Shown one piece after another: positions 919 through 25,530 of a stretch of DNA of 64,000 nt. The stretch comes from Deltaproteobacteria bacterium (GTDB lineage: Bacteria > Desulfobacterota_D > UBA1144 > Nemesobacterales > UBA2774): NCBI GenBank assembly GCA_029262275.1, contig JAJCZS010000029.1, positions 186,001 to 250,000 on the forward strand. Direction: 5' to 3'. The translations under genes were made by a program, and so were the position numbers. Position 1 is the first letter of the stretch, and each line of letters starts with the position of its first letter. The notes beneath the pieces were generated by a model. That model was not told the DNA's origin, searched no databases, and saw only the letters and a program-made list of their open reading frames with translations.

Positions 919-1533
919 ATGCCCATGGAAATTAGAAAATTCGACGTACAAACTCATGACCTAAATACTGTATCTGACCTTATTCTACAGGCATATAGTG
1001 AGTCTGGGCAAGAAATTTCATATGACGAAAATTCAAGACAAATAGTTAAAGATTTGGTTGAGATAGGGAACAATTTCCTAGGTCATGAAAATATCTACCT
1101 CTGTTTTAGTGATAACACAGTGTCAGGCCTTGTTATTGGCTACACAGGAAAATCATACAGCAAAGTACAAACGTTGTTTGGTCTCCTAATAAGACTGAAA
1201 CTCTCGCAAGTTATAAGCTACCTACTAATTGGCTCTCAATTATTTGATGCTATATACACACCGAACCTTAAAGAGGACGATTTTTATATAAGTGTGATAG
1301 TTGTGGATGAAGAATATAGGAACATGGGCATCGGGGCATTCATGCTCAAAGAGGCCGTTAGGATTGCAAAGGAAAAAGAGTGCAATAAAATTGTTCTTGA
1401 TGTTGATAGAGACAATACCGCAGCTCAATCACTATATAAGAAATTTGGTTTCATCAAGATTAACGAGAGTCTTAAATATAAATCACAAAATTCAGAGAGC
1501 AATTACTGTTCGATGGAATACACATTAAGTTAA
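919..1533 (+). CDS. GNAT family N-acetyltransferase
   Basis: A 204-residue acyl-CoA-dependent N-acetyltransferase. The acetyl-CoA-binding motif A is clear: VVDEEYRNMGIGAFML around residues 128-143, with the R-x-x-G-x-G/A signature, followed by DRDNTAAQSLYKKFGF, the typical motif B. The substrate cannot be read from the sequence. The middle (residues about 60-120) is more hydrophobic than usual and divergent. No good Shine-Dalgarno precedes the ATG; a possible promoter TTTGGA-17-TAAAAT lies about 26 bases upstream. The nuclease gene begins 12 bases after its stop, so the two are probably co-transcribed. Confidence 0.85.
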   Translation: MPMEIRKFDVQTHDLNTVSDLILQAYSESGQEISYDENSRQIVKDLVEIGNNFLGHENIYLCFSDNTVSGLVIGYTGKSYSKVQTLFGLLIRLKLSQVISYLLIGSQLFDAIYTPNLKEDDFYISVIVVDEEYRNMGIGAFMLKEAVRIAKEKECNKIVLDVDRDNTAAQSLYKKFGFIKINESLKYKSQNSESNYCSMEYTLS

Positions 1534-1545
1534 TGGTGCTTTACT

Positions 1546-2472
1546 ATGGCTGATTTTAAAAATGAATTTAGCTGGTCCTATTCAAGAGACGTGCTCTTTA
1601 AAGAGTGTAAAAGAGAGTATTACTACAATTATTACGGCTCATGGGGCGGCTGGGAAAAAAATAGAGCAGACTCTGTTACAAGAACTCTTTATGTACTAAA
1701 GAATCTGCAAAACCGTTGGCAGTGGAAGGGATCCGCTGTTCATGATGAGATTGAGAGAATATTAAAAGAGCTTGTTAGCACAGGAAAACTAACCCCTCTC
1801 GATAAATCAAAAGAGAGAGTAACAGAGATTATGAGAAGTGACTTTAGGTCTTCTCGTAATGGTTCTTACTGGAACAAAAGCGGCAGCCTGCGAAATGAAC
1901 CCGGGCTTTATGAGCACGAGTACAGACCAGAAATACCAGATCAGATCTGGAAGAGAAATTATGATGAGGTTATGCTGTGTTTAGATAATTTTTACGAGTC
2001 CTCAGTGATTGAAGAAGTATCTAGTCTTCCCAAAGAGGTTATCTGCTCCATAGAAAGTATGACTGGGTCATATTTTTCATTTAATACTGAGCTATATTAC
2101 GTTAAGCTGGATTTGGCTTATAGTATTGGAGATAGCATCAAGATTTACGATTGGAAAACTGGATCTGGGGATGCGAATGACCTGCAGTTCTTGATATATG
2201 CCTTGTATGCACTTGAAGAGCTCGACTTTGATTTGGACAAAATTAGCGTCACGGAGCTAAATCTTTTTGAGAACTATACAAGAATTCACACTTTTACCCA
2301 AGAACAAATAGATTATGCAAGAAACTACATTAACCAGAGCATAGATGGTATGAAGAGTTATCTGAGCAATCAGGAAGAAAATGAAGCAAATATGACCAAT
2401 TTCCCAAGAACAGAGGATAGAAAAACTTGTGAACTGTGCAAATTTCAGAAAATTTGCTTTGATTTAGACTAA
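1546..2472 (+). CDS. PD-(D/E)XK nuclease of the Cas4/AddB (RecB-like) type, probable 4Fe-4S
   Basis: A 308-residue stand-alone nuclease of the RecB/Cas4 superfamily. The N-terminus has the family box FSWSYSRDVLFKECKREYYYNYYG, with Cys21. The active site is visible as Asp189 in VKLDLAYS, then Asp202 and Lys204 in IYDWKTG, then Gln in DLQFLIYAL. The C-terminus carries CELCKFQKIC, giving Cys295, Cys298 and Cys304. C-Xn-CxxC-x5-C is the iron-sulfur pattern of Cas4, AddB and Dna2. No cas genes or helicase are nearby, so a general DNA repair or processing role is inferred rather than CRISPR adaptation. Likely co-transcribed with the GNAT gene just upstream. Confidence 0.85.
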   Translation: MADFKNEFSWSYSRDVLFKECKREYYYNYYGSWGGWEKNRADSVTRTLYVLKNLQNRWQWKGSAVHDEIERILKELVSTGKLTPLDKSKERVTEIMRSDFRSSRNGSYWNKSGSLRNEPGLYEHEYRPEIPDQIWKRNYDEVMLCLDNFYESSVIEEVSSLPKEVICSIESMTGSYFSFNTELYYVKLDLAYSIGDSIKIYDWKTGSGDANDLQFLIYALYALEELDFDLDKISVTELNLFENYTRIHTFTQEQIDYARNYINQSIDGMKSYLSNQEENEANMTNFPRTEDRKTCELCKFQKICFDLD

Positions 2473-2565
2473 AAATTAATAGCTATGAGCATTTGACTAT
2501 GAAATTCATCTTAATTAAAGTATGCAGGATAGCTATAAAGCAATACATTACATAGTGAACGTAAA

Positions 2566-3909
2566 ATGGCAGAACTAATAAAAAAAGTTCGTGACTTTCT
2601 AACAAAAGATATATGGCATCTGGATACCTCTACTCTAAATAGAACCCGATCCTCTCTAGTTTATCTTGTCAAACTCATCTATGCGACTATCAAGGGATAT
2701 ACAGAGAATGAACTAGCGTTAAGAGCCATGGGGCTCGTTTATACTACTTTACTTTCCATAGTTCCTCTTCTGGCATTTAGTGTCTCAATATTAAAAGCCT
2801 TTGGAGTGGTTGAAAACCAGTTGCAACCCTTTCTAGCTAACTTCTTAGAGCCGCTTGGGGATAAAGGATCGGAAATAACGAGTCAGATTATCGGATTTAT
2901 CGATAACATAAATTTTGGAGTTTTAGGTGTAGTAGGTCTCCTGCTTCTCATATATACCTCAGTCTCTCTTATTATGAAGATTGAAGACTCAATGAACCAT
3001 ATCTGGAACGTAAGAAGAGGTAGAAGCATTGTTAGAAGATTTAGCGACTATATAACTATATTGCTCCTAGGTCCGGTTCTTATGTTCGCAGCAATAGGTC
3101 TGACGGCTTCATTTGAAAGCAATGCTGTTGTTCAAAAAGTGCTTGAGATTGAGCCACTTGGAACATTGGTATTATTTGCAGGCAAATTCATACCTTACCT
3201 ATTTGTATTTATGGTTTTCACATTCATCTACATAATTATTCCAAATACGAAGGTCAACTTTAAGTCTGCTCTTATTGGTGGTGCAGTAGCCGGTATAGCA
3301 TGGCAGACAACAGGCTGGGTATTTGCATTCTCAGTAGCAAAATCTACTAAATATGCGGCTATTTATTCAAGCCTTGCGGTATTAATACTATTTATGCTCT
3401 GGTTATATGTAAACTGGTTGATACTCCTAGCTGGCGCCCAGATTACGTACTGCCATCAAAACCTAAAAACGCTTGATTTAGGCCGAACTATATTTCAGCT
3501 AAGCAGTAAGGTCAAAGAAAAACTAGCTTTCATGGTTATGTATCTAATAGGCTACAACTTCTATCACGATAAGGAAAAATGGACTCATGATAGTCTTATT
3601 AAGTATTTGGAGCTGCCAAGAGAATCTATTGAAGATACGATCAAAGAGCTTGAGGACAAGAATTTATTAATTGAAATTGGTGAGGATCAGCCCTACTATC
3701 TCCCAGCAAAAGATATTGAATCAATTAAGCTCTCTGAAATTTTAGACTCTGCAAGAGTAAATAGGGAAACTGAGGTCCTAGAAAGCAATCACTTATCTAA
3801 GCCCGAGGTAGACCGGATAACAGATAAAATAGAGGACGCAATACATACGTCACTTGGAGATTTGACCTTAAGAGATATAGTTGTTAAAAAAGCAGATGAA
3901 AGTTCTTAG
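2566..3909 (+). CDS. YihY/virulence factor BrkB family membrane protein with C-terminal extension
   Basis: A 447-residue inner-membrane protein. Residues about 35-300 are the YihY/BrkB core: a hydrophilic start, NELALRAMGLVYTTLLSIVPLLAF, and further helices including the IYSSLAVLILFMLWLYVNWLILLAGAQ end typical of the family (about six membrane segments). Residues about 310-447 form a soluble extension with a winged-helix look (YLELPRESIEDTIKELEDKNLLIE), as in longer family members. The family is often mislabelled RNase BN; its true function is unsettled. The gene stands alone and converges on the lectin gene at 3931. Confidence 0.88.
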   Translation: MAELIKKVRDFLTKDIWHLDTSTLNRTRSSLVYLVKLIYATIKGYTENELALRAMGLVYTTLLSIVPLLAFSVSILKAFGVVENQLQPFLANFLEPLGDKGSEITSQIIGFIDNINFGVLGVVGLLLLIYTSVSLIMKIEDSMNHIWNVRRGRSIVRRFSDYITILLLGPVLMFAAIGLTASFESNAVVQKVLEIEPLGTLVLFAGKFIPYLFVFMVFTFIYIIIPNTKVNFKSALIGGAVAGIAWQTTGWVFAFSVAKSTKYAAIYSSLAVLILFMLWLYVNWLILLAGAQITYCHQNLKTLDLGRTIFQLSSKVKEKLAFMVMYLIGYNFYHDKEKWTHDSLIKYLELPRESIEDTIKELEDKNLLIEIGEDQPYYLPAKDIESIKLSEILDSARVNRETEVLESNHLSKPEVDRITDKIEDAIHTSLGDLTLRDIVVKKADESS

Positions 3910-19334: not shown

Positions 19335-20744
19335 ATGAGTAAATCACGAAGTAGCATTGGATATTATGTTTTATTTTTTGCTTTTTTGTTTTTAATTAAT
19401 GTTTATCCTTTAAAGTCTGCACATTCTCAGTTTTCGTGCTTACCAACCTGTAGTGAGATAGACTCAAAGTTTTTTGTTTTCATAGGAGATAATCCTAACG
19501 GCGTTCAGAACCAAACAATGAATTTTGGTATTACATCTCCAGCTAGTGCAGATTCAGTCGAAATAGGCATATTTGATGGAGACAGCCCTAATTCGGACTG
19601 GGATTTTGTTGTAGCTGGGCCTGGTATTAATATGACCTTTACCTTATTTGCCGACCCCCAGGGAGACGGCACCGGGACCCTTCAAGTAGCTCAGTGGTCT
19701 ACAAACGGTATATTAGGCGATAATCCAGGTGATCCGATGCTTAACAACGCATGGTTTACAAGGGTGATACAGAATACACAACAGGCAATAGCTGAAAATG
19801 GTGATTACAAATATAACCTTTTTATAGAAATTGTAGGTGCCACAACACAAAGCGATCGAAATTCCTTTAAGGTAAGAACTGATGGATTCCTGCTGTTATT
19901 TCCACTCCAGATGTTTAATTTTAATTCTCTAGTTTCTCAAAATGCCGATTTAACTTTGGGTACAGGTGATTTTCATATTGTATTCCCTGATCTAGATTTA
20001 TTCGATCCGTCTTGTGCAGATCCTCTGGTACCGTTTCCAACATTCTGCAATGCTACTCTACCCTCTTGCTGTTTGTTTAATTCAACATACGACGGTATGT
20101 GGTCATTTTTCTTCAGGCTACCGCCAGACGTGGTGAGACTGCCTATATGGGACGGGGATTTTGACTTCGGCAGTTCTATTATTGATCCAAATGACCCTGA
20201 CAATCTCCTTTGCATAGTGGGCGGTCCTGATGTGGATACTGATGACCCAAACACCGGTCCAATTATACCGTTTTTCGCGTTAGACACGGAGTCTGTTATC
20301 CAAGGCATAAGCACCCCTACATTCCCTTTTGATAATGTATGTAATGGTTTTGCTCCAAGACTACCTAGTGCGCAATACAGTTTTGTAGATCCAAACGGCG
20401 TAGAGCATAACAATGTTAATCCATCAGGAAATGCGGAATGGGAGCTATTTAGTTTGACTAACGTTCCTCCATTGGATCCACTAGTAGATGATTTGCTTGT
20501 GGCTGATTTTCCAGAAGGTCTGTGGCAGGTAAAAACAGTTGGTCTCGATATGTTTAATGTAAACCTATTCTTTTTTGAGTATCCTATAATAGGTGTAAAT
20601 GAAGAGGGAGAACCTGTGGAACCTCCTGATGATCCTAGGTCTGTACCTACCTTATCACAATGGGGATTAATTGCCACTGCTGGATTATTAGGAATCATCG
20701 GTTTTATAGTAATTCGTAGAAGACAATTAACAACAAATAGCTAA
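19335..20744 (+). CDS. IPTL-CTERM sorting-domain surface protein
   Basis: 469 residues, exported (signal segment in residues 1-33). The C-terminus, residues 437-469, is a textbook IPTL-CTERM sorting signal: VPTLSQWGLI, a hydrophobic helix, then IRRRQ. The body is acidic and beta-rich with several Cys pairs (CLPTCSE, CADPLVPFPTFC, LPSCCLF) and many D/N/P-rich turns, as in secreted adhesin-like proteins. IPTL-CTERM proteins are believed to be processed by an exosortase-like enzyme and delivered to the surface; no such enzyme is in the window. The body matches no family I know. The gene lies between tRNA-Thr and a partial copy of its 3' end. Confidence 0.85.
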   Translation: MSKSRSSIGYYVLFFAFLFLINVYPLKSAHSQFSCLPTCSEIDSKFFVFIGDNPNGVQNQTMNFGITSPASADSVEIGIFDGDSPNSDWDFVVAGPGINMTFTLFADPQGDGTGTLQVAQWSTNGILGDNPGDPMLNNAWFTRVIQNTQQAIAENGDYKYNLFIEIVGATTQSDRNSFKVRTDGFLLLFPLQMFNFNSLVSQNADLTLGTGDFHIVFPDLDLFDPSCADPLVPFPTFCNATLPSCCLFNSTYDGMWSFFFRLPPDVVRLPIWDGDFDFGSSIIDPNDPDNLLCIVGGPDVDTDDPNTGPIIPFFALDTESVIQGISTPTFPFDNVCNGFAPRLPSAQYSFVDPNGVEHNNVNPSGNAEWELFSLTNVPPLDPLVDDLLVADFPEGLWQVKTVGLDMFNVNLFFFEYPIIGVNEEGEPVEPPDDPRSVPTLSQWGLIATAGLLGIIGFIVIRRRQLTTNS

Positions 20745-20814: not shown

Positions 20815-21000
20815 TCAAACCTTTAATCTCCAGGAAATATTCATTTCATACAATCAAAACAAATAGAAAAGTCTTACAAAAGTCCCATATAGTCGCCTAA
20901 AATATTAGACATTGTTTGGACTTTACACGCCCTTCCCCATTTGATAAAAATTGTTTATAGGACAGTGTGACAGTACAAATCTGATTTAATGGAGGTAATT

Positions 21001-21441
21001 ATGAGTAAAAGCATAACAAAGGGTGGCATATTCACAATACAAACTGACACAAATGTAGCTGCATGGGAAGATTGTTATTTATCTGTTGATAAAAATGGAC
21101 TTACATTAACAGAATCCCCTATTAGAACAGGGGGGCATAAGTGGAAGTTAATAAAGAATGAAGGATGCTTTTATTTACAAACTCAAACTACCATTGCTGC
21201 TTACAAAAACTGTTATTTAGGTATTGACAAGAATACCGGTGCTGTACGTTTACTTGAAGACAATACAAACGAAACTCTATGGTTTATAACAAGTTTTGCG
21301 GGTGATTACAGGTTACAAAATCAGACTTATGTTGCTGAATATAGGGACGACTATTTAACACTAAATAAATATGGTCGTTTCATTCTGACAGAAGAGCCTA
21401 CAACGTTTAAATCGGACTGGGATTTTTCTTCAGTCAAATAA
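21001..21441 (+). CDS. Three-repeat beta-trefoil-like protein, 146 aa
   Basis: Starts at the ATG at 21001, with GGAGG five bases upstream. Three repeats of 46 residues (about 5-50, 51-96, 97-142) share the pattern F/Y-x-(I/L)Q(T/N)-x-T-x-(V/I)A-x-(W/Y) ... C/D-YL-x-(V/I/L)(D/N)K-x-G ... and a Trp at 48, 94 and 140. Three-fold repetition with this period and aromatic content is what a beta-trefoil (lectin, fascin-like) looks like, but I cannot assign a subfamily. No signal peptide, so probably cytoplasmic or released by another route. Ligand unknown. Confidence 0.7.
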   Translation: MSKSITKGGIFTIQTDTNVAAWEDCYLSVDKNGLTLTESPIRTGGHKWKLIKNEGCFYLQTQTTIAAYKNCYLGIDKNTGAVRLLEDNTNETLWFITSFAGDYRLQNQTYVAEYRDDYLTLNKYGRFILTEEPTTFKSDWDFSSVK

Positions 21442-21503: not shown

Positions 21504-22517
21504 CTAATTGAATAGTTCTTCTCTTTCTTTTTGCAGGATTTCTTGGGGTAAAGCAACAAGCCCAGCTTCGGTGATAGCTTCCTGGCCATTCTTGCTCAAG
21601 ATATATTCCACAAACTTCCTTGTTACATTTTTCATCCCTTCTGAAGGATTTTCCCTCAAATATAGATAAAGGTCTCTGGTTAAGGGGTATTGCTTAGATC
21701 TGGCATACCGAGTTTCTGGTGGGAAGCACTTATCTTCTGATTCGCCTATATTAATCGCTTTCACTCTGGACGGTAGCAATCCTGCGCCGGTGTATCCTAT
21801 CGAAGAAATGTCACGCGAAACAAAATCAACAATGTCTCTTGAGCTTGCCAGATCTGTAATGCTTTGTTTGTATGTCCCGTCGCATAGGGCTATCTTTCTA
21901 AAAACATCATATGTGCCAGATGTTGAGGTTCTCCCATATACTCGAATAGGAGTATTTAACCATTCGCCCACAAGGTTTAATCCTCCCCAAGTTGTGATAT
22001 CAGCTGACCCCTTACAGGAGTAACTATTTGAAAATACTCCGTCTAATTCATCTATTGTCATACAATTTATGGGGTTTTCTATATTCACCAGAACAGCAAT
22101 CATATTGATTGCGACCTTAATTTCCACCGGTTCATAACCGTATACATTCTTAAAATCCTGTTTTTCCTGATTTGACATAGGCTCTGACATAGCCCCTATA
22201 TCAACATTGCCTGTTTCTAGATCTTGTGGAGCCTTGCGGGAGCCGAAGTTTTCGACCATACAATTGGTATTATGATATATATCCGAGAAACCTTTACACC
22301 AAAGAGACAAAATATTGCTCATAGTTGATGAGCCTGAGATAGATATTGTGCCGTAAACTTTTGCTCTTTGAACCGAACTTGTATCTGAGCTGCAGCTGGT
22401 GGCGACCATAGACATGAACAACAAGCTCAACAATATGCAAACGTTCCTATGTCTGCCAATATTGTTTTGCACTTGTATGATATTAAAACATCCGGATGAT
22501 TCCAATATTATTCTCAT
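21504..22517 (-). CDS. PstS-like periplasmic binding lipoprotein, paired with an ion channel
   Basis: 337 residues. An unusually long n-region (about 24 residues) leads to a hydrophobic stretch and lipobox VATSC (Cys42). The mature part follows the PstS fold: GTISISGSSTMSNILSLW, a VDIGAMSEPM stretch, NPINCMTIDELDGVFS, and GRTSTSGTYDVFRKI, which matches the oxyanion-binding loops of phosphate-binding proteins. No pstCAB transporter genes are present. Its ATG overlaps the stop of the channel gene (ATGA), so the two are co-translated. A role as ligand-presenting partner of the channel is inferred. Confidence 0.85.
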   Translation of the reverse strand: MRIILESSGCFNIIQVQNNIGRHRNVCILLSLLFMSMVATSCSSDTSSVQRAKVYGTISISGSSTMSNILSLWCKGFSDIYHNTNCMVENFGSRKAPQDLETGNVDIGAMSEPMSNQEKQDFKNVYGYEPVEIKVAINMIAVLVNIENPINCMTIDELDGVFSNSYSCKGSADITTWGGLNLVGEWLNTPIRVYGRTSTSGTYDVFRKIALCDGTYKQSITDLASSRDIVDFVSRDISSIGYTGAGLLPSRVKAINIGESEDKCFPPETRYARSKQYPLTRDLYLYLRENPSEGMKNVTRKFVEYILSKNGQEAITEAGLVALPQEILQKEREELFN

Positions 22518-23590
22518 TTGATTAGATCCACTATTTGCAGCTCCTTGGTATCAAATATGTAATAAATCAAAAGCCATACAGATATCATAAATACCGGGAA
22601 AGCAAATCTGCAAATATTGTTACCAAGACTCCATACTCTCTCACGTCCTCTTTGCTTAAATAATTCAAAAATAATGATTGCTATAATTATCATCCCGCAC
22701 ATAAAATATCCGGAAGTTATTATAGCGTTTAACATTGTTTTATACGGAACACTTGGGAGATACTTTAGGACTAAAAAATTAAAGGCAACTGATGTAAGAG
22801 CAAAGGATACTACAATGCTAGTCCGGCCGCTTATAAAAGACGAGTTTATCCAGAACACGCAGGTCGCCATCAGTATGAAGAAGCAAAACGGTATTATAAT
22901 CCGTAATATGTAGAATGCAGACCTACGTTCTAGCTTCATTTCATAAAGTATGTACGCGCGGTCTTGGGTCTCAAATCCAAATGCCCTTTTAAATCCCGCA
23001 AATACAGATATAGGATAAGCAACCCAGTCATCACTCCTGAACAACTTGCTGATTCCTGTATATTGTTCAGACGCTATAAACACCAACTGGTCAGAATTAT
23101 AAGTGAATGATTGTAATTCTAGCTTTAACTCCTGATCATCAAAAGGAAATCTTGTGTAGTCAAATTCTGTGAGAATATCGGCTGAGAATATGTATCTGTA
23201 TACAATAGAGCCGTCAGGAAATATTGTGAGATTATTCTTCTGGATACTCGGTTTGCTGGCCTGATTGATAATCTCGGGGTCCGGATACCACATTGTAGCA
23301 AGCATCTTATCAGCCAGTGGTCCCGAATAGACCTTTGGAGCACCGTCCGGGCTTTGAAAAGATACTCTGTCATCCTTCCACAGCATAGTTATCTCAAAAA
23401 GACCGCTTAAAATTTGATTAGGCTGGTCAATCTTTACAATGTGCAATAAGTATAAGCCCATCTCAACTTCAAAAGGCTGTTCTGTTGATGTGGGTATGGG
23501 TTTAGAGATGGGAAGACTTTGTGCAGCAGAATATACAGCAGCACAATATAGCACAATAATTGATGCACCAATAAATAGAAAATGTCTCAT
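22514..23590 (-). CDS. Pentameric ligand-gated ion channel (prokaryotic Cys-loop family)
   Basis: 358 residues. Signal peptide 1-23, then the beta-sandwich ligand domain with GLYLLHIVKIDQPNQ near the start and the hallmark FPFDDQ at 148-153 (Cys-loop position, without the Cys pair, as in GLIC and ELIC). Four membrane helices follow: M1 about 226-248, M2 254-276 (RTSIVVSFALTSVAFNFLV), M3 286-312, M4 328-346. M2 aligns with GLIC at AFN-x-LV, giving Ser2', Ser6', Leu9'. Positions -2' and -1' are Ser and Gly with Arg at 0', so the acidic ring typical of cation channels is missing. Overlaps the binding-lipoprotein gene. No Shine-Dalgarno before the ATG. Confidence 0.92.
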   Translation of the reverse strand: MRHFLFIGASIIVLYCAAVYSAAQSLPISKPIPTSTEQPFEVEMGLYLLHIVKIDQPNQILSGLFEITMLWKDDRVSFQSPDGAPKVYSGPLADKMLATMWYPDPEIINQASKPSIQKNNLTIFPDGSIVYRYIFSADILTEFDYTRFPFDDQELKLELQSFTYNSDQLVFIASEQYTGISKLFRSDDWVAYPISVFAGFKRAFGFETQDRAYILYEMKLERRSAFYILRIIIPFCFFILMATCVFWINSSFISGRTSIVVSFALTSVAFNFLVLKYLPSVPYKTMLNAIITSGYFMCGMIIIAIIIFELFKQRGRERVWSLGNNICRFAFPVFMISVWLLIYYIFDTKELQIVDLIK

Positions 23591-23835: not shown

Positions 23836-24459
23836 TTATTTACTGCAATACTTCTTTATGAAATCGGGCGCAAGAATGTAGCCCATATCACCAGCTTTTT
23901 TCATATCCTTGCAGCCGGCTTCTGTCTGGCCTAATTTAAATTCGGAGAGTGCCCTACCCTCATAGGCTGGTACGTTCTCGGGATCTAGCTCTAGAGTCTT
24001 ATCATAATCCTCAATTGCTCCATTGTAGTCCCCAAGCAACCTCTTTGCCTTGGCCCTAAATCCATAGGGAAAGGGAGAGTCAGGTTTATGCTTAATGTAG
24101 ATATTCAGATCTTTAATTGCAGCTTTGTAATTCTTAAGTTCAATTTCACAAATTGCTCTTGCGTAATAGGCTACGTACATATTTGGATCAAGCTCTGCTA
24201 CTTTGCTATAGTTTGAGACTGCTTGTTCATAATTAGCCAACTCTTGATATGTGAATGCTAAGTTATAGTAAGCTTTGGCATAATTGGGGTCGAGCTCGAT
24301 TGCTTTTTTATAATCTTCAACAGCGCCCTTGTTATTGCCCTTCATGCCCTTGTTATCACCCATAGTGTTATATTGCTCGGCAGTTTGGGCAAAAGCTAAA
24401 TTTATGGAGATAAAGCTAAGTAGAAATACAAATAGAAACAATCTTTTTAATGAAATCAT
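23836..24459 (-). CDS. Exported TPR-repeat protein
   Basis: About 207 residues. Signal peptide MISLKRLFLFVFLLSFISI...AFAQ, then four to five tetratricopeptide repeats (KGAVEDYKKAIELDPNYAKA, YEQAVSNYSKVAELDPNMY, KAAIKDLNIYIKHKPDSPF, NGAIEDYDKTLELDPEN), ending with a Cys-bearing cap (GCKDMKKAGDMGY). I start at the ATG at 24459; a TTG two codons earlier abuts the upstream stop. Paralogue of the gene directly upstream, sharing the same architecture and terminal cap. Probably a periplasmic scaffold; partner unknown. Confidence 0.85.
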   Translation of the reverse strand: MISLKRLFLFVFLLSFISINLAFAQTAEQYNTMGDNKGMKGNNKGAVEDYKKAIELDPNYAKAYYNLAFTYQELANYEQAVSNYSKVAELDPNMYVAYYARAICEIELKNYKAAIKDLNIYIKHKPDSPFPYGFRAKAKRLLGDYNGAIEDYDKTLELDPENVPAYEGRALSEFKLGQTEAGCKDMKKAGDMGYILAPDFIKKYCSK

Positions 24460-24465
24460 GGGCAA

Positions 24466-25098
24466 TTATTTGGTGCAATGTTCTTTTTTCAGCTGCCCTG
24501 CACCAGCAAATCCCATAGTCCCTGCTCTAGTTATATCTTTACACCCTGATTCTATTTGGTTTAGAGAAATTTTTGCAATACCCCTACCTGCATAAGCTGC
24601 AACATTATTAGGATCTATGCCGATAGCTTTATTAAAATCTTTTAAAGCTCCTTCGTTGTCACCTATTGCGCCTTTCGCATTTGCCCTAAACACATATAGC
24701 AAAGAGTCGTTAGGGGTTAGCTTAATAGCTTGGTTATAATCCTGTATCGCTCCCTCACCGTCTCTCAACGACAACTTAGCGTTTGCTCTAAAAGTGAAAT
24801 ACACTGCATTCTTCGGGTCCAGCTCTATAGCTTTATTAAAGTCCTGTATTGCTCCTGGAAAATCATTTAGTATTGCTTTTGGAAAGCCTCTGCCTGCGTA
24901 TAGAGCAGCATCATTAGGATCTAGCTTTATGGCCTGGTTGAAGTCTAGTATTGATCCCTTATAATCGCCTCTTTCAAATTTGGCCCTGCCTTGAGCAACA
25001 TACTGTTCTACAGTTTGGGCAAAACTAATATCTATAGATATTAGAACAGCAAGAATAACAAAGAGTATCGTCTTATTGGTTAGTTTATGTGTGATCAT
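24466..25098 (-). CDS. Exported TPR-repeat protein (paralogue)
   Basis: About 210 residues from the ATG at 25098. Signal peptide MITHKLTNKTILFVILAVLI...SFAQ, then repeats such as KGSILDFNQAIKLDPNDAAL and PGAIQDFNKAIELDPKNAVY, and the same C-terminal cap (GCKDITRAGTMGF) as its neighbour. The start is chosen because a full sigma70 promoter ends 7 bases before it; a TTG 12 codons upstream would lie inside the -35 box. This implies a leaderless message. The pair probably arose by tandem duplication; the downstream copy starts at the stop of this one. Confidence 0.85.
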   Translation of the reverse strand: MITHKLTNKTILFVILAVLISIDISFAQTVEQYVAQGRAKFERGDYKGSILDFNQAIKLDPNDAALYAGRGFPKAILNDFPGAIQDFNKAIELDPKNAVYFTFRANAKLSLRDGEGAIQDYNQAIKLTPNDSLLYVFRANAKGAIGDNEGALKDFNKAIGIDPNNVAAYAGRGIAKISLNQIESGCKDITRAGTMGFAGAGQLKKEHCTK

Positions 25099-25105
25099 AC
25101 GTGCA

Positions 25106-25134
25106 ATTATAGATGATGAAATATTGCATATCAA
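25106..25134 (-). promoter_or_regulatory. sigma70 promoter of the TPR pair, abutting the start codon
   Basis: On the minus strand TTGATA (25134-25129), 17-base spacer, TATAAT (25111-25106), then 7 bases to the ATG at 25098. The expected start site coincides with the A of the ATG. Confidence 0.65.
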
Positions 25135-25185: not shown

Positions 25186-25530
25186 ATGGCGTATGACGAA
25201 AAAATAGCAAAGCGTTTGAGCAAAACATTTGCCGACAATAAAAACGTTGTCGAGAAAAAGATGTTCGGCGGAATTGCTTATATGTACCAAGATCATATGT
25301 GTGTTGGGATTATAGATGACATGCTAATGGTTAGGGTTGGCCCCGAGCAATACGAGGAAGCACTGTCCGAGAAATACGTAAAGCCTATGGACTTTACTGG
25401 AAGACCGATGAAGGGCTACATCTACGTCGAACCCGCAGGATTTAAGACTGAAAAGAATCTAGTTAAGTGGATTGAGAAAGGAATCGCTTTCGTTAAAACA
25501 CTTCCACCCAAAAAGCCTAAGAAGAAATAG
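25186..25530 (+). CDS. TfoX/Sxy N-terminal domain protein
   Basis: 114 residues. YDEKIAKRLSKTFADNKNVVEKKMFGGIAYMYQDHMCVGIIDD, LMVRVGPEQYEEAL and the GRPMKGYIYVEPAGF segment are characteristic of the TfoX N-terminal domain. Only this domain is present; the C-terminal half of competence regulator TfoX is lacking, so control of competence should not be assumed. TAAAAT lies 8 bases before the ATG and there is no ribosome site. The 3' end overlaps the convergent oxidoreductase gene by 14 bases. Confidence 0.88.
   Translation: MAYDEKIAKRLSKTFADNKNVVEKKMFGGIAYMYQDHMCVGIIDDMLMVRVGPEQYEEALSEKYVKPMDFTGRPMKGYIYVEPAGFKTEKNLVKWIEKGIAFVKTLPPKKPKKK

What the first reader, a model, noticed from the sequence alone, without database searches (positions are those of the whole stretch)
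21504..23590. Ligand-gated ion channel co-translated with a PstS-type binding lipoprotein
A prokaryotic pentameric ligand-gated channel (FPFDDQ at 148-153, GLIC-like M1-M4) overlaps by ATGA with a phosphate-binding-type lipoprotein, and no pstCAB genes are near. The overlap implies one message and matched amounts. Known from family surveys: bacterial pLGIC genes sometimes neighbour periplasmic binding proteins, and some carry extra N-terminal domains. Inferred: the lipoprotein, tethered in the periplasm, captures an oxyanion and presents it to, or gates, the channel, making a two-part chemosensory channel. The two TPR exported proteins upstream could belong to the same unit.
Basis: partly seen in the sequence, partly recalled or inferred. 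Interest (0 to 1): 0.8.

Follow-up and report, generated by a model that had tools for sequence, protein, structure and literature searches.

The report
Ion channel with orphan PstS partner
A marine Dadabacteria genome carries a bacterial relative of nerve-receptor ion channels joined head-to-tail to a highly diverged, transporter-less phosphate-type binding lipoprotein; the pair is conserved as a unit in three genomes, which suggests a two-part sensor, but the idea is 20 years old and a physical contact is not shown.

Summary
On the minus strand, 22514-23590 is a GLIC-like pentameric ligand-gated channel and 21504-22517 a PstS-class lipoprotein, overlapping by ATGA. All three available genomes with this channel subfamily carry the pair; one has different flanking genes and no TPR gene, so the pair is the unit and the TPR genes are not. 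Neither the next-nearest channel (G007, 40%) nor any of 53 other channel loci sampled has a PstS-like neighbour. The genome's ordinary pstS lies elsewhere in a complete pst operon. The paired SBP is strongly diverged from it (40% identity; ordinary PstS is nearer P. aeruginosa PstS, 60%) yet keeps core anion-contact residues.

Corrections: the ATGA start is uncertain (absent in one relative). Phosphate is not established as ligand. 'Chemosensory' cannot mean classical chemotaxis: no MCP signalling domain in the three genomes. By the E. coli +2 rule the lipoprotein would go to the outer membrane, away from the channel. SBP-channel gene neighbourhoods, and the same functional proposal, were published in 2004. 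A second, different SBP-channel pair (PBP type I + probable Cache-channel) lies 13 kb beyond the window.

Verdict: real, conserved, a new member of a known kind; gating is inference.

The parts
22514..23590 (-). Pentameric ligand-gated ion channel, 358 aa, GLIC-like, with N-terminal signal (about residues 4-22), no extra N-terminal domain
   Evidence: Pfam PF02931 2.9e-19; TIGR00860 3.5e-31 (below its cut-off); GLIC PDB chains 1.6e-29; dN/dS about 0.1 against G002 and G013
23132..23149 (-). Pro-loop F-P-F-D-D-Q, residues 148-153
   Evidence: Sequence; F148, P149, F150, D151, Q153 invariant in four homologues
22550..22909 (-). Four transmembrane helices M1-M4 (peaks at residues 228-246, 257-275, 290-308, 329-347); M2 with R256 at 0' and L265 at 9'; -2' is Ser here, Asp in the two paired relatives
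   Evidence: Hydropathy; alignment to GLIC and relatives
22514..22517 (-). ATGA overlap: stop of the channel gene and first ATG of the SBP frame
   Evidence: present in G002, absent in G013
22470..22472 (-). Alternative GTG start of the SBP (codon 16), near the start used in G002/G013; would give a standard-length lipoprotein signal
   Evidence: Junction DNA of three genomes; inference
21504..22517 (-). Diverged PstS-class solute-binding lipoprotein, 337 aa; lipobox ATSC, Cys42
   Evidence: PF12849 6.5e-28; P. aeruginosa PstS 4omb/4pqj 4e-62; divergence from housekeeping PstS
23836..24465 (-). Exported TPR protein upstream; considered and NOT counted as part of the unit
   Evidence: TPR; G002 has one TPR gene here, G013 none
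24466..25134 (-). Second exported TPR protein; NOT counted as part of the unit
   Evidence: TPR; no second copy beside the pair in G002, none in G013

Best explanation
The two genes are a conserved, co-transcribed functional unit: a homopentameric GLIC-type channel in the inner membrane plus a PstS paralogue that has left the Pst transporter and serves the channel. Most likely the lipoprotein binds a small anion in the periplasm and, loaded or empty, docks on (or hands ligand to) the channel's extracellular domain and shifts its gating, turning solute supply into an ion flux. Shown: both proteins' families, adjacency and close spacing in three genomes, conservation across different flanking genes, purifying selection on both, absence of a nearby transporter, presence of a separate complete pst operon, strong divergence of the SBP with core anion-contact residues kept. 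Inferred: one mRNA, the ligand, physical contact, direction of the effect, the cellular response.
For: Close channel relatives in G002 (73%) and G013 (76%) both carry the SBP immediately downstream (63-68%). In G013 the flanks are unrelated (SIMPL protein, sigma-70 factor) and there is no TPR gene, so the pair holds together while the surroundings change. The extra SBP occurs only in the genomes that have this channel clade: every other PstS found in the family-level genomes is the ~40% housekeeping type. Housekeeping pstS is in pstS-pstC-pstA-pstB-x-phoU at G000:C36. Paired SBPs form their own 100/100 clade on a very long stem; 125 of 157 columns conserved in housekeeping PstS are kept in P. 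aeruginosa PstS but only about 81 in the paired SBPs. Loop residues S63-S64-T65, S93, S111, R196 (K in G013), S200-G201-T202 match phosphate contacts described for SAR11 and X. citri binding proteins (PMC12421899, PMC5439949). dN/dS about 0.1-0.2 for both genes. A second SBP-channel pair in the same genome, with another SBP fold, is conserved in G002. PBP-I-channel fusions and PBP-II neighbours are reported in PMC549065.
Against: Only three genomes; G002 and G013 are MAG contigs and G013 (7.5 kb contig, 80% complete, 4% contaminated) could be mis-binned. The sister channel G007 (40%) has no SBP neighbour. None of 53 other pLGIC loci sampled has a PstS-like neighbour and none of 28 other close same-strand neighbours is any SBP. 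The Cys +2 residue (Ser, Lys, Lys) predicts outer-membrane sorting by the E. coli rule, whether or not Dadabacteria follow it. No interface could be modelled.
Confidence: 0.45

Rival explanations
1. Co-regulated but not touching: channel and SBP are made together under the same condition (for example oxyanion or phosphate stress). The SBP scavenges or buffers its ligand, or acts as an outer-membrane lipoprotein, while the channel responds to its own stimulus such as pH, Ca2+ or a small acid, as characterised bacterial pLGICs do.
For: Characterised bacterial pLGICs gate without an SBP (GLIC by protons; DeCLIC by Ca2+ depletion, PMC9897478). Channel G007 stands alone. +2 residue of the SBP points to the outer membrane by the E. 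coli rule. The channel has a normal ECD of its own.
Against: The pair survives a change of neighbours and is the only common element of the three loci; SBP-channel association recurs with another SBP fold.
Confidence: 0.3
2. The SBP is an alternative substrate-binding subunit for the Pst ABC transporter and sits beside the channel for regulatory or historical reasons.
For: Same superfamily and 41% identity to the housekeeping PstS; core anion-contact residues retained.
Against: It has lost about half of the columns that housekeeping PstS keeps, most of which are kept even in P. aeruginosa, which argues against continued docking on the same PstCA; it is on another contig from the pst operon.
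Confidence: 0.12
3. Hitch-hiking: the two genes are neighbours by descent or shared transfer, without common function.
For: Only one clade of three genomes; channel and SBP identities (G013 > G002) run against the CDC48 order (G002 89%, G013 81%), as expected if a segment moved horizontally.
Against: Same order, strand and near-zero spacing kept at 63-76% identity while everything around changed in G013; both genes under purifying selection.
Confidence: 0.08

Closest known systems
Prokaryotic ART-LGIC genes in predicted operons with stand-alone PBP-II proteins (Tasneem et al. 2004, PMC549065)
   Same: Same gene arrangement (channel beside a type II periplasmic binding protein) and the same proposal that the binding protein concentrates or senses ligand for the channel
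   Different: The text held does not say which PBP-II family was found; here it is a PstS-class lipoprotein, shown as a conserved pair in Dadabacteria together with the genome's separate pst operon; no MCP chemoreceptors in these genomes
GLIC (Gloeobacter violaceus proton-gated channel)
   Same: Full-length homology, simple ECD+TMD architecture, Pro-loop, M1-M4
   Different: Distant by sequence; no acid at M2 -2' in the window channel (Ser); linked SBP gene
PstS of P. aeruginosa (4omb/4pqj) and the housekeeping Dadabacteria PstS
   Same: Fold family, length, core anion-contact residues
   Different: Paired SBP lacks the conserved GSDT, GSSTAP, MSR and RNSASGT-G signatures (GS[ST]T, GS[RD][KN]AP, MSE, [RK]TxxSGT-D), is a lipoprotein, and has no transporter beside it
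Bacterial pLGICs with fused PBP-I or Cache domains (PMC549065) and DeCLIC (N-terminal jelly-roll domains)
   Same: Ligand-binding or modulatory module attached to a pLGIC
   Different: Here the module is a separate polypeptide of another fold class

Membership tests
Pentameric ligand-gated ion channel (pLGIC, Pro-loop) | Neurotransmitter-type ligand-binding domain | tested here: met
   PF02931 69.8 bits vs cut-off 26
Pentameric ligand-gated ion channel (pLGIC, Pro-loop) | Pro-loop with FPFD-type motif | tested here: met
   FPFDDQ 148-153, invariant core in homologues
Pentameric ligand-gated ion channel (pLGIC, Pro-loop) | Four-helix TM domain with basic 0' and Leu 9' in M2 | tested here: met
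   Hydropathy, alignment to GLIC; R256 and L265; frequencies from PMC4795631. Pfam TM model alone below cut-off
Pentameric ligand-gated ion channel (pLGIC, Pro-loop) | Forms a pentamer and gates ions | not testable with these tools
   Single-chain model of low confidence (pLDDT 46)
PstS phosphate-binding protein | PBP_like_2 / PstS fold family by sequence | tested here: met
   PF12849 98.7 bits vs 27; 4omb 4e-62. TIGR02136 183.5 bits, below its cut-off 206.6
PstS phosphate-binding protein | Phosphate-contact residues | tested here: inconclusive
   Core Ser/Thr, Arg and SGT positions kept; neighbouring conserved residues D64, S94-T95, R112, N197 all changed
PstS phosphate-binding protein | Encoded with or serving pstCAB | tested here: not met
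   Encoded with: no pstC/pstA in the window; the pst operon with its own pstS is at C36. Whether it can serve that transporter in trans was not testable
SBP-pLGIC conserved neighbourhood (Tasneem 2004) | Channel adjacent to stand-alone PBP-II, conserved in more than one genome | tested here: met
   Three genomes, two contexts
SBP-pLGIC conserved neighbourhood (Tasneem 2004) | Functional cooperation / chemoreceptor role | not testable with these tools
   No co-folding offered; MCPsignal absent in the three genomes with positive controls, which speaks against MCP-based chemotaxis only

The most novel reading that the evidence does not exclude
A detachable PstS-class lipoprotein is the ligand-recognition subunit of a pLGIC: the loaded SBP docks on the pentamer and gates it, making a two-component ligand-gated channel in which specificity is exchanged by swapping SBPs (PstS-type here, PBP type I at the second locus of the same genome).
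Probability: 0.3. Interest if true: 0.8.

Novelty: new member of a known kind. Interest (0 to 1): 0.45.

Why it matters
A 2016 survey states that no biological role is known for any pLGIC of unicellular organisms (PMC4795631). A minimal two-gene unit with a separable, soluble candidate ligand-binding partner, and a housekeeping paralogue as control, makes the ligand and role of one such channel directly testable. If the SBP gates the channel, it would be a route by which binding proteins control ion channels in trans, parallel to the fused binding domains of animal glutamate receptors.

Tried and rejected
TPR genes as part of the unit: rejected because G013 has the pair without them. Simple ATGA translational coupling as a conserved feature: rejected, absent in G013. 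MCP-based chemotaxis as the output: no MCPsignal domain in G000, G002, G013, while the same search found it in 7 of 14 control genomes. More pairs in viral contigs: none. On plasmids: one unrelated 28% channel in Legionella adelaidensis, neighbours not examined. AlphaFold models of both proteins from three-sequence alignments: too poor to use, so no fold search was run. General association of pLGICs with PstS-like genes: not seen in 53 other loci from Dadabacteria and a few other groups. Profile-profile test of the Cache-channel against the paired channel: only the Pro-loop region aligned, probability 5%, so that protein is only a probable pLGIC. Promoter and terminator scans gave about as many sites as shuffled sequence.

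Full report
WHAT IS THERE. The window is bases 186001-250000 of contig C29 of a 2.48-Mb, 97% complete genome. The nearest named relatives of the channel are in 'Candidatus Dadabacteria bacterium SZUA-126' and 'Thermodesulfobacteriota bacterium DHS20C13', so this is a Dadabacteria-type organism. On the minus strand a 358-aa channel gene (22514-23590) is followed by a 337-aa solute-binding lipoprotein gene (21504-22517), sharing ATGA. The channel matches Neur_chan_LBD (2.9e-19) and GLIC over nearly its whole length (1.6e-29). The second protein is PBP_like_2 / PstS (6.5e-28; P. aeruginosa PstS 4e-62), with one N-terminal hydrophobic stretch and Cys42 in ATSC.

THE START OF THE BINDING PROTEIN IS NOT SETTLED. 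The ATGA overlap is present in the window and in relative G002. In relative G013 the channel ends with TAA and the SBP frame has no ATG at that place; its first ATG is 44 nt downstream of the channel. G002 and G013 share an in-frame ATG there, preceded by GTGGA; the window has ATC at that codon and a GTG three codons later. So close spacing is conserved, the overlap itself is not, and the inference 'matched amounts' from ATGA should be dropped.

CONSERVATION. Of 44 genomes of the order, 13 have a pLGIC at E <= 1e-10. Three have this channel subfamily: the window, G002 (73% identity) and G013 (76%); all three have the SBP directly downstream. G007 has a 40% channel without an SBP beside it. G002 is syntenic with the window (a TPR gene, the small gene at 25186, the gene at 25517, the SSF transporter and others). 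G013 has different flanks: a SIMPL protein and a sigma-70 factor. The pair is thus the conserved unit; the TPR genes are not. In a maximum-likelihood tree of 57 pLGICs the three paired channels form a 100/99 clade on a stem of 0.94 changes per site, sister to G007 at 100/100. The pair is patchy: five other genomes of the same genus lack it. Channel and SBP identities rank G013 above G002, whereas a conserved AAA protein ranks G002 (89%) above G013 (81%); horizontal exchange or uneven rates may explain this, and G013 is a 7.5-kb MAG contig, so caution is due. Both genes are under purifying selection (dN/dS about 0.1-0.2; dS is near saturation).

CONTROLS ON PAIRING. A local PstS profile found no PstS-like gene in 53 other pLGIC loci (Dadabacteria plus an order sampled around G248 and one further genome; loci show 1.5-9 kb of flank, some cut by contig ends). 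Pfam on 28 other close same-strand neighbours of pLGICs found no SBP of any class. So the PstS pairing is a property of this clade, not of pLGICs at large.

THE BINDING PROTEIN IS NOT THE TRANSPORTER'S. The genome's other PstS lies in a complete operon pstS-pstC-pstA-pstB-x-phoU on C36. Most order members have exactly that housekeeping PstS. It is on average 59.5% identical to P. aeruginosa PstS; the paired SBPs are 33-36% identical to that protein and 40.5% to the housekeeping ones; they form a separate clade on a very long stem. Of 157 columns conserved in housekeeping PstS, P. aeruginosa PstS keeps 125, paired SBPs about 81. Core contact positions as described for phosphate-binding proteins (PMC12421899: Ser32, Ser33, Thr34, Thr61, Ser83, Gly174, Thr175; PMC5439949: Ser34, Ser62, Asp80, Arg159, Gly164, Thr165, Asn201), mapped through the alignments, are retained as S63-S64-T65, S93, S111, R196, S200-G201-T202. 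Residues next to them change in all three paired SBPs: D64 to S/T, S94-T95 to R/D-K/N, R112 to E, N197 to T, G204 to D. An anion ligand is plausible; orthophosphate is not established. The mapping is by sequence alignment only.

A SECOND PAIR. On the same contig, 13 kb past the window (L032 3234-6649), a Peripla_BP_6 protein (8.9e-45) overlaps by TAATG a 681-aa protein with an MCP-like PDC domain and, C-terminally, a YPFSNEN Pro-loop-like motif and four TM segments. Its pLGIC assignment is weak by sequence (GLIC chimera 0.0086; local profile i-E 0.0023; hhalign probability 5%). Both genes are adjacent and 80% identical in G002. This agrees with architectures in PMC549065. A third pattern: the C7-type pLGIC has a conserved downstream lipoprotein (Cys-Asp at +2) 37-58 nt away in five genomes.

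HOW IT MAY WORK. Inference: the SBP captures an anion in the periplasm and acts on the channel's extracellular domain, by docking or by raising local ligand. The output would be an ion flux; in the window channel M2 -2' is Ser where GLIC has Glu and the two paired relatives have Asp, so ion selectivity cannot be assigned. MCP-based chemotaxis is unlikely: no MCPsignal domain in the three genomes. A difficulty: the residue after the lipid-bearing Cys is Ser, Lys, Lys, not Asp; in Gram-negative bacteria Asp at +2 keeps lipoproteins from being moved to the outer membrane (rule as stated in the abstract of PMC5727369). Whether Dadabacteria follow it is unknown.

PRIOR KNOWLEDGE. PMC549065 reported in 2004 bacterial ART-LGICs in conserved neighbourhoods with stand-alone PBP-II proteins, fusions to PBP-I and Cache domains, and proposed that these concentrate or sense ligands for the channel. 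A text search for ligand-gated ion channel with PstS and solute-binding protein found no paper in the library. The finding is therefore a well-supported new instance, with a defined SBP class, of a known but untested kind of arrangement.

VERDICT. Observation confirmed; interpretation partly supported; novelty 'new member of a known kind'; interest 0.45, mainly because the unit is compact, has built-in controls and addresses the open question of what bacterial pLGICs do.

Noticed in passing
L032 3234-6649 (same contig, about 13 kb beyond the window end): Peripla_BP_6 protein overlapping by TAATG a 681-aa PDC/Cache plus probable pLGIC fusion: a second SBP-channel pair in this genome, conserved at 80% in G002.
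   Followed up: partly
L031 8539-10508; also L038, L041, L017, L015: Another Dadabacteria pLGIC subfamily has a conserved downstream lipoprotein (about 277 aa, Cys-Asp, weak CarboxypepD_reg match) 37-58 nt away in five genomes; a third channel-lipoprotein pairing.
   Followed up: partly
L030 7695-10166 and L036 13200-15673: A third pLGIC subfamily keeps a 455-aa gene (unassigned here) 67-69 nt upstream in two genomes.
   Followed up: no
L159 2480-3457 with 550-2478; L160 498-1475 with 1477-3402: In two other genomes of the order a secreted binding-protein-like gene directly precedes a protein related to the Cache half of the Cache-channel but with another C-terminal part: the same layout with another output.
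   Followed up: no
window 19335-20744: Secreted protein with an IPTL-CTERM sorting motif, pointing to an exosortase-type system in this genome.
   Followed up: no
window 20989-21441 (+), tail-to-tail with the SBP: 150-aa protein with three internal repeats resembling a beta-trefoil by eye; no Pfam or NCBIfam match.
   Followed up: no
L033 8490-10805: The PstC of the housekeeping operon is 771 aa with an insertion that matches WD40/beta-propeller models weakly (8.9e-8), unusual for a permease.
   Followed up: no
G000, G002, G013: No MCPsignal domain in any of the three pair-bearing genomes although G000 and G002 carry a Cache/PDC sensor protein.
   Followed up: yes
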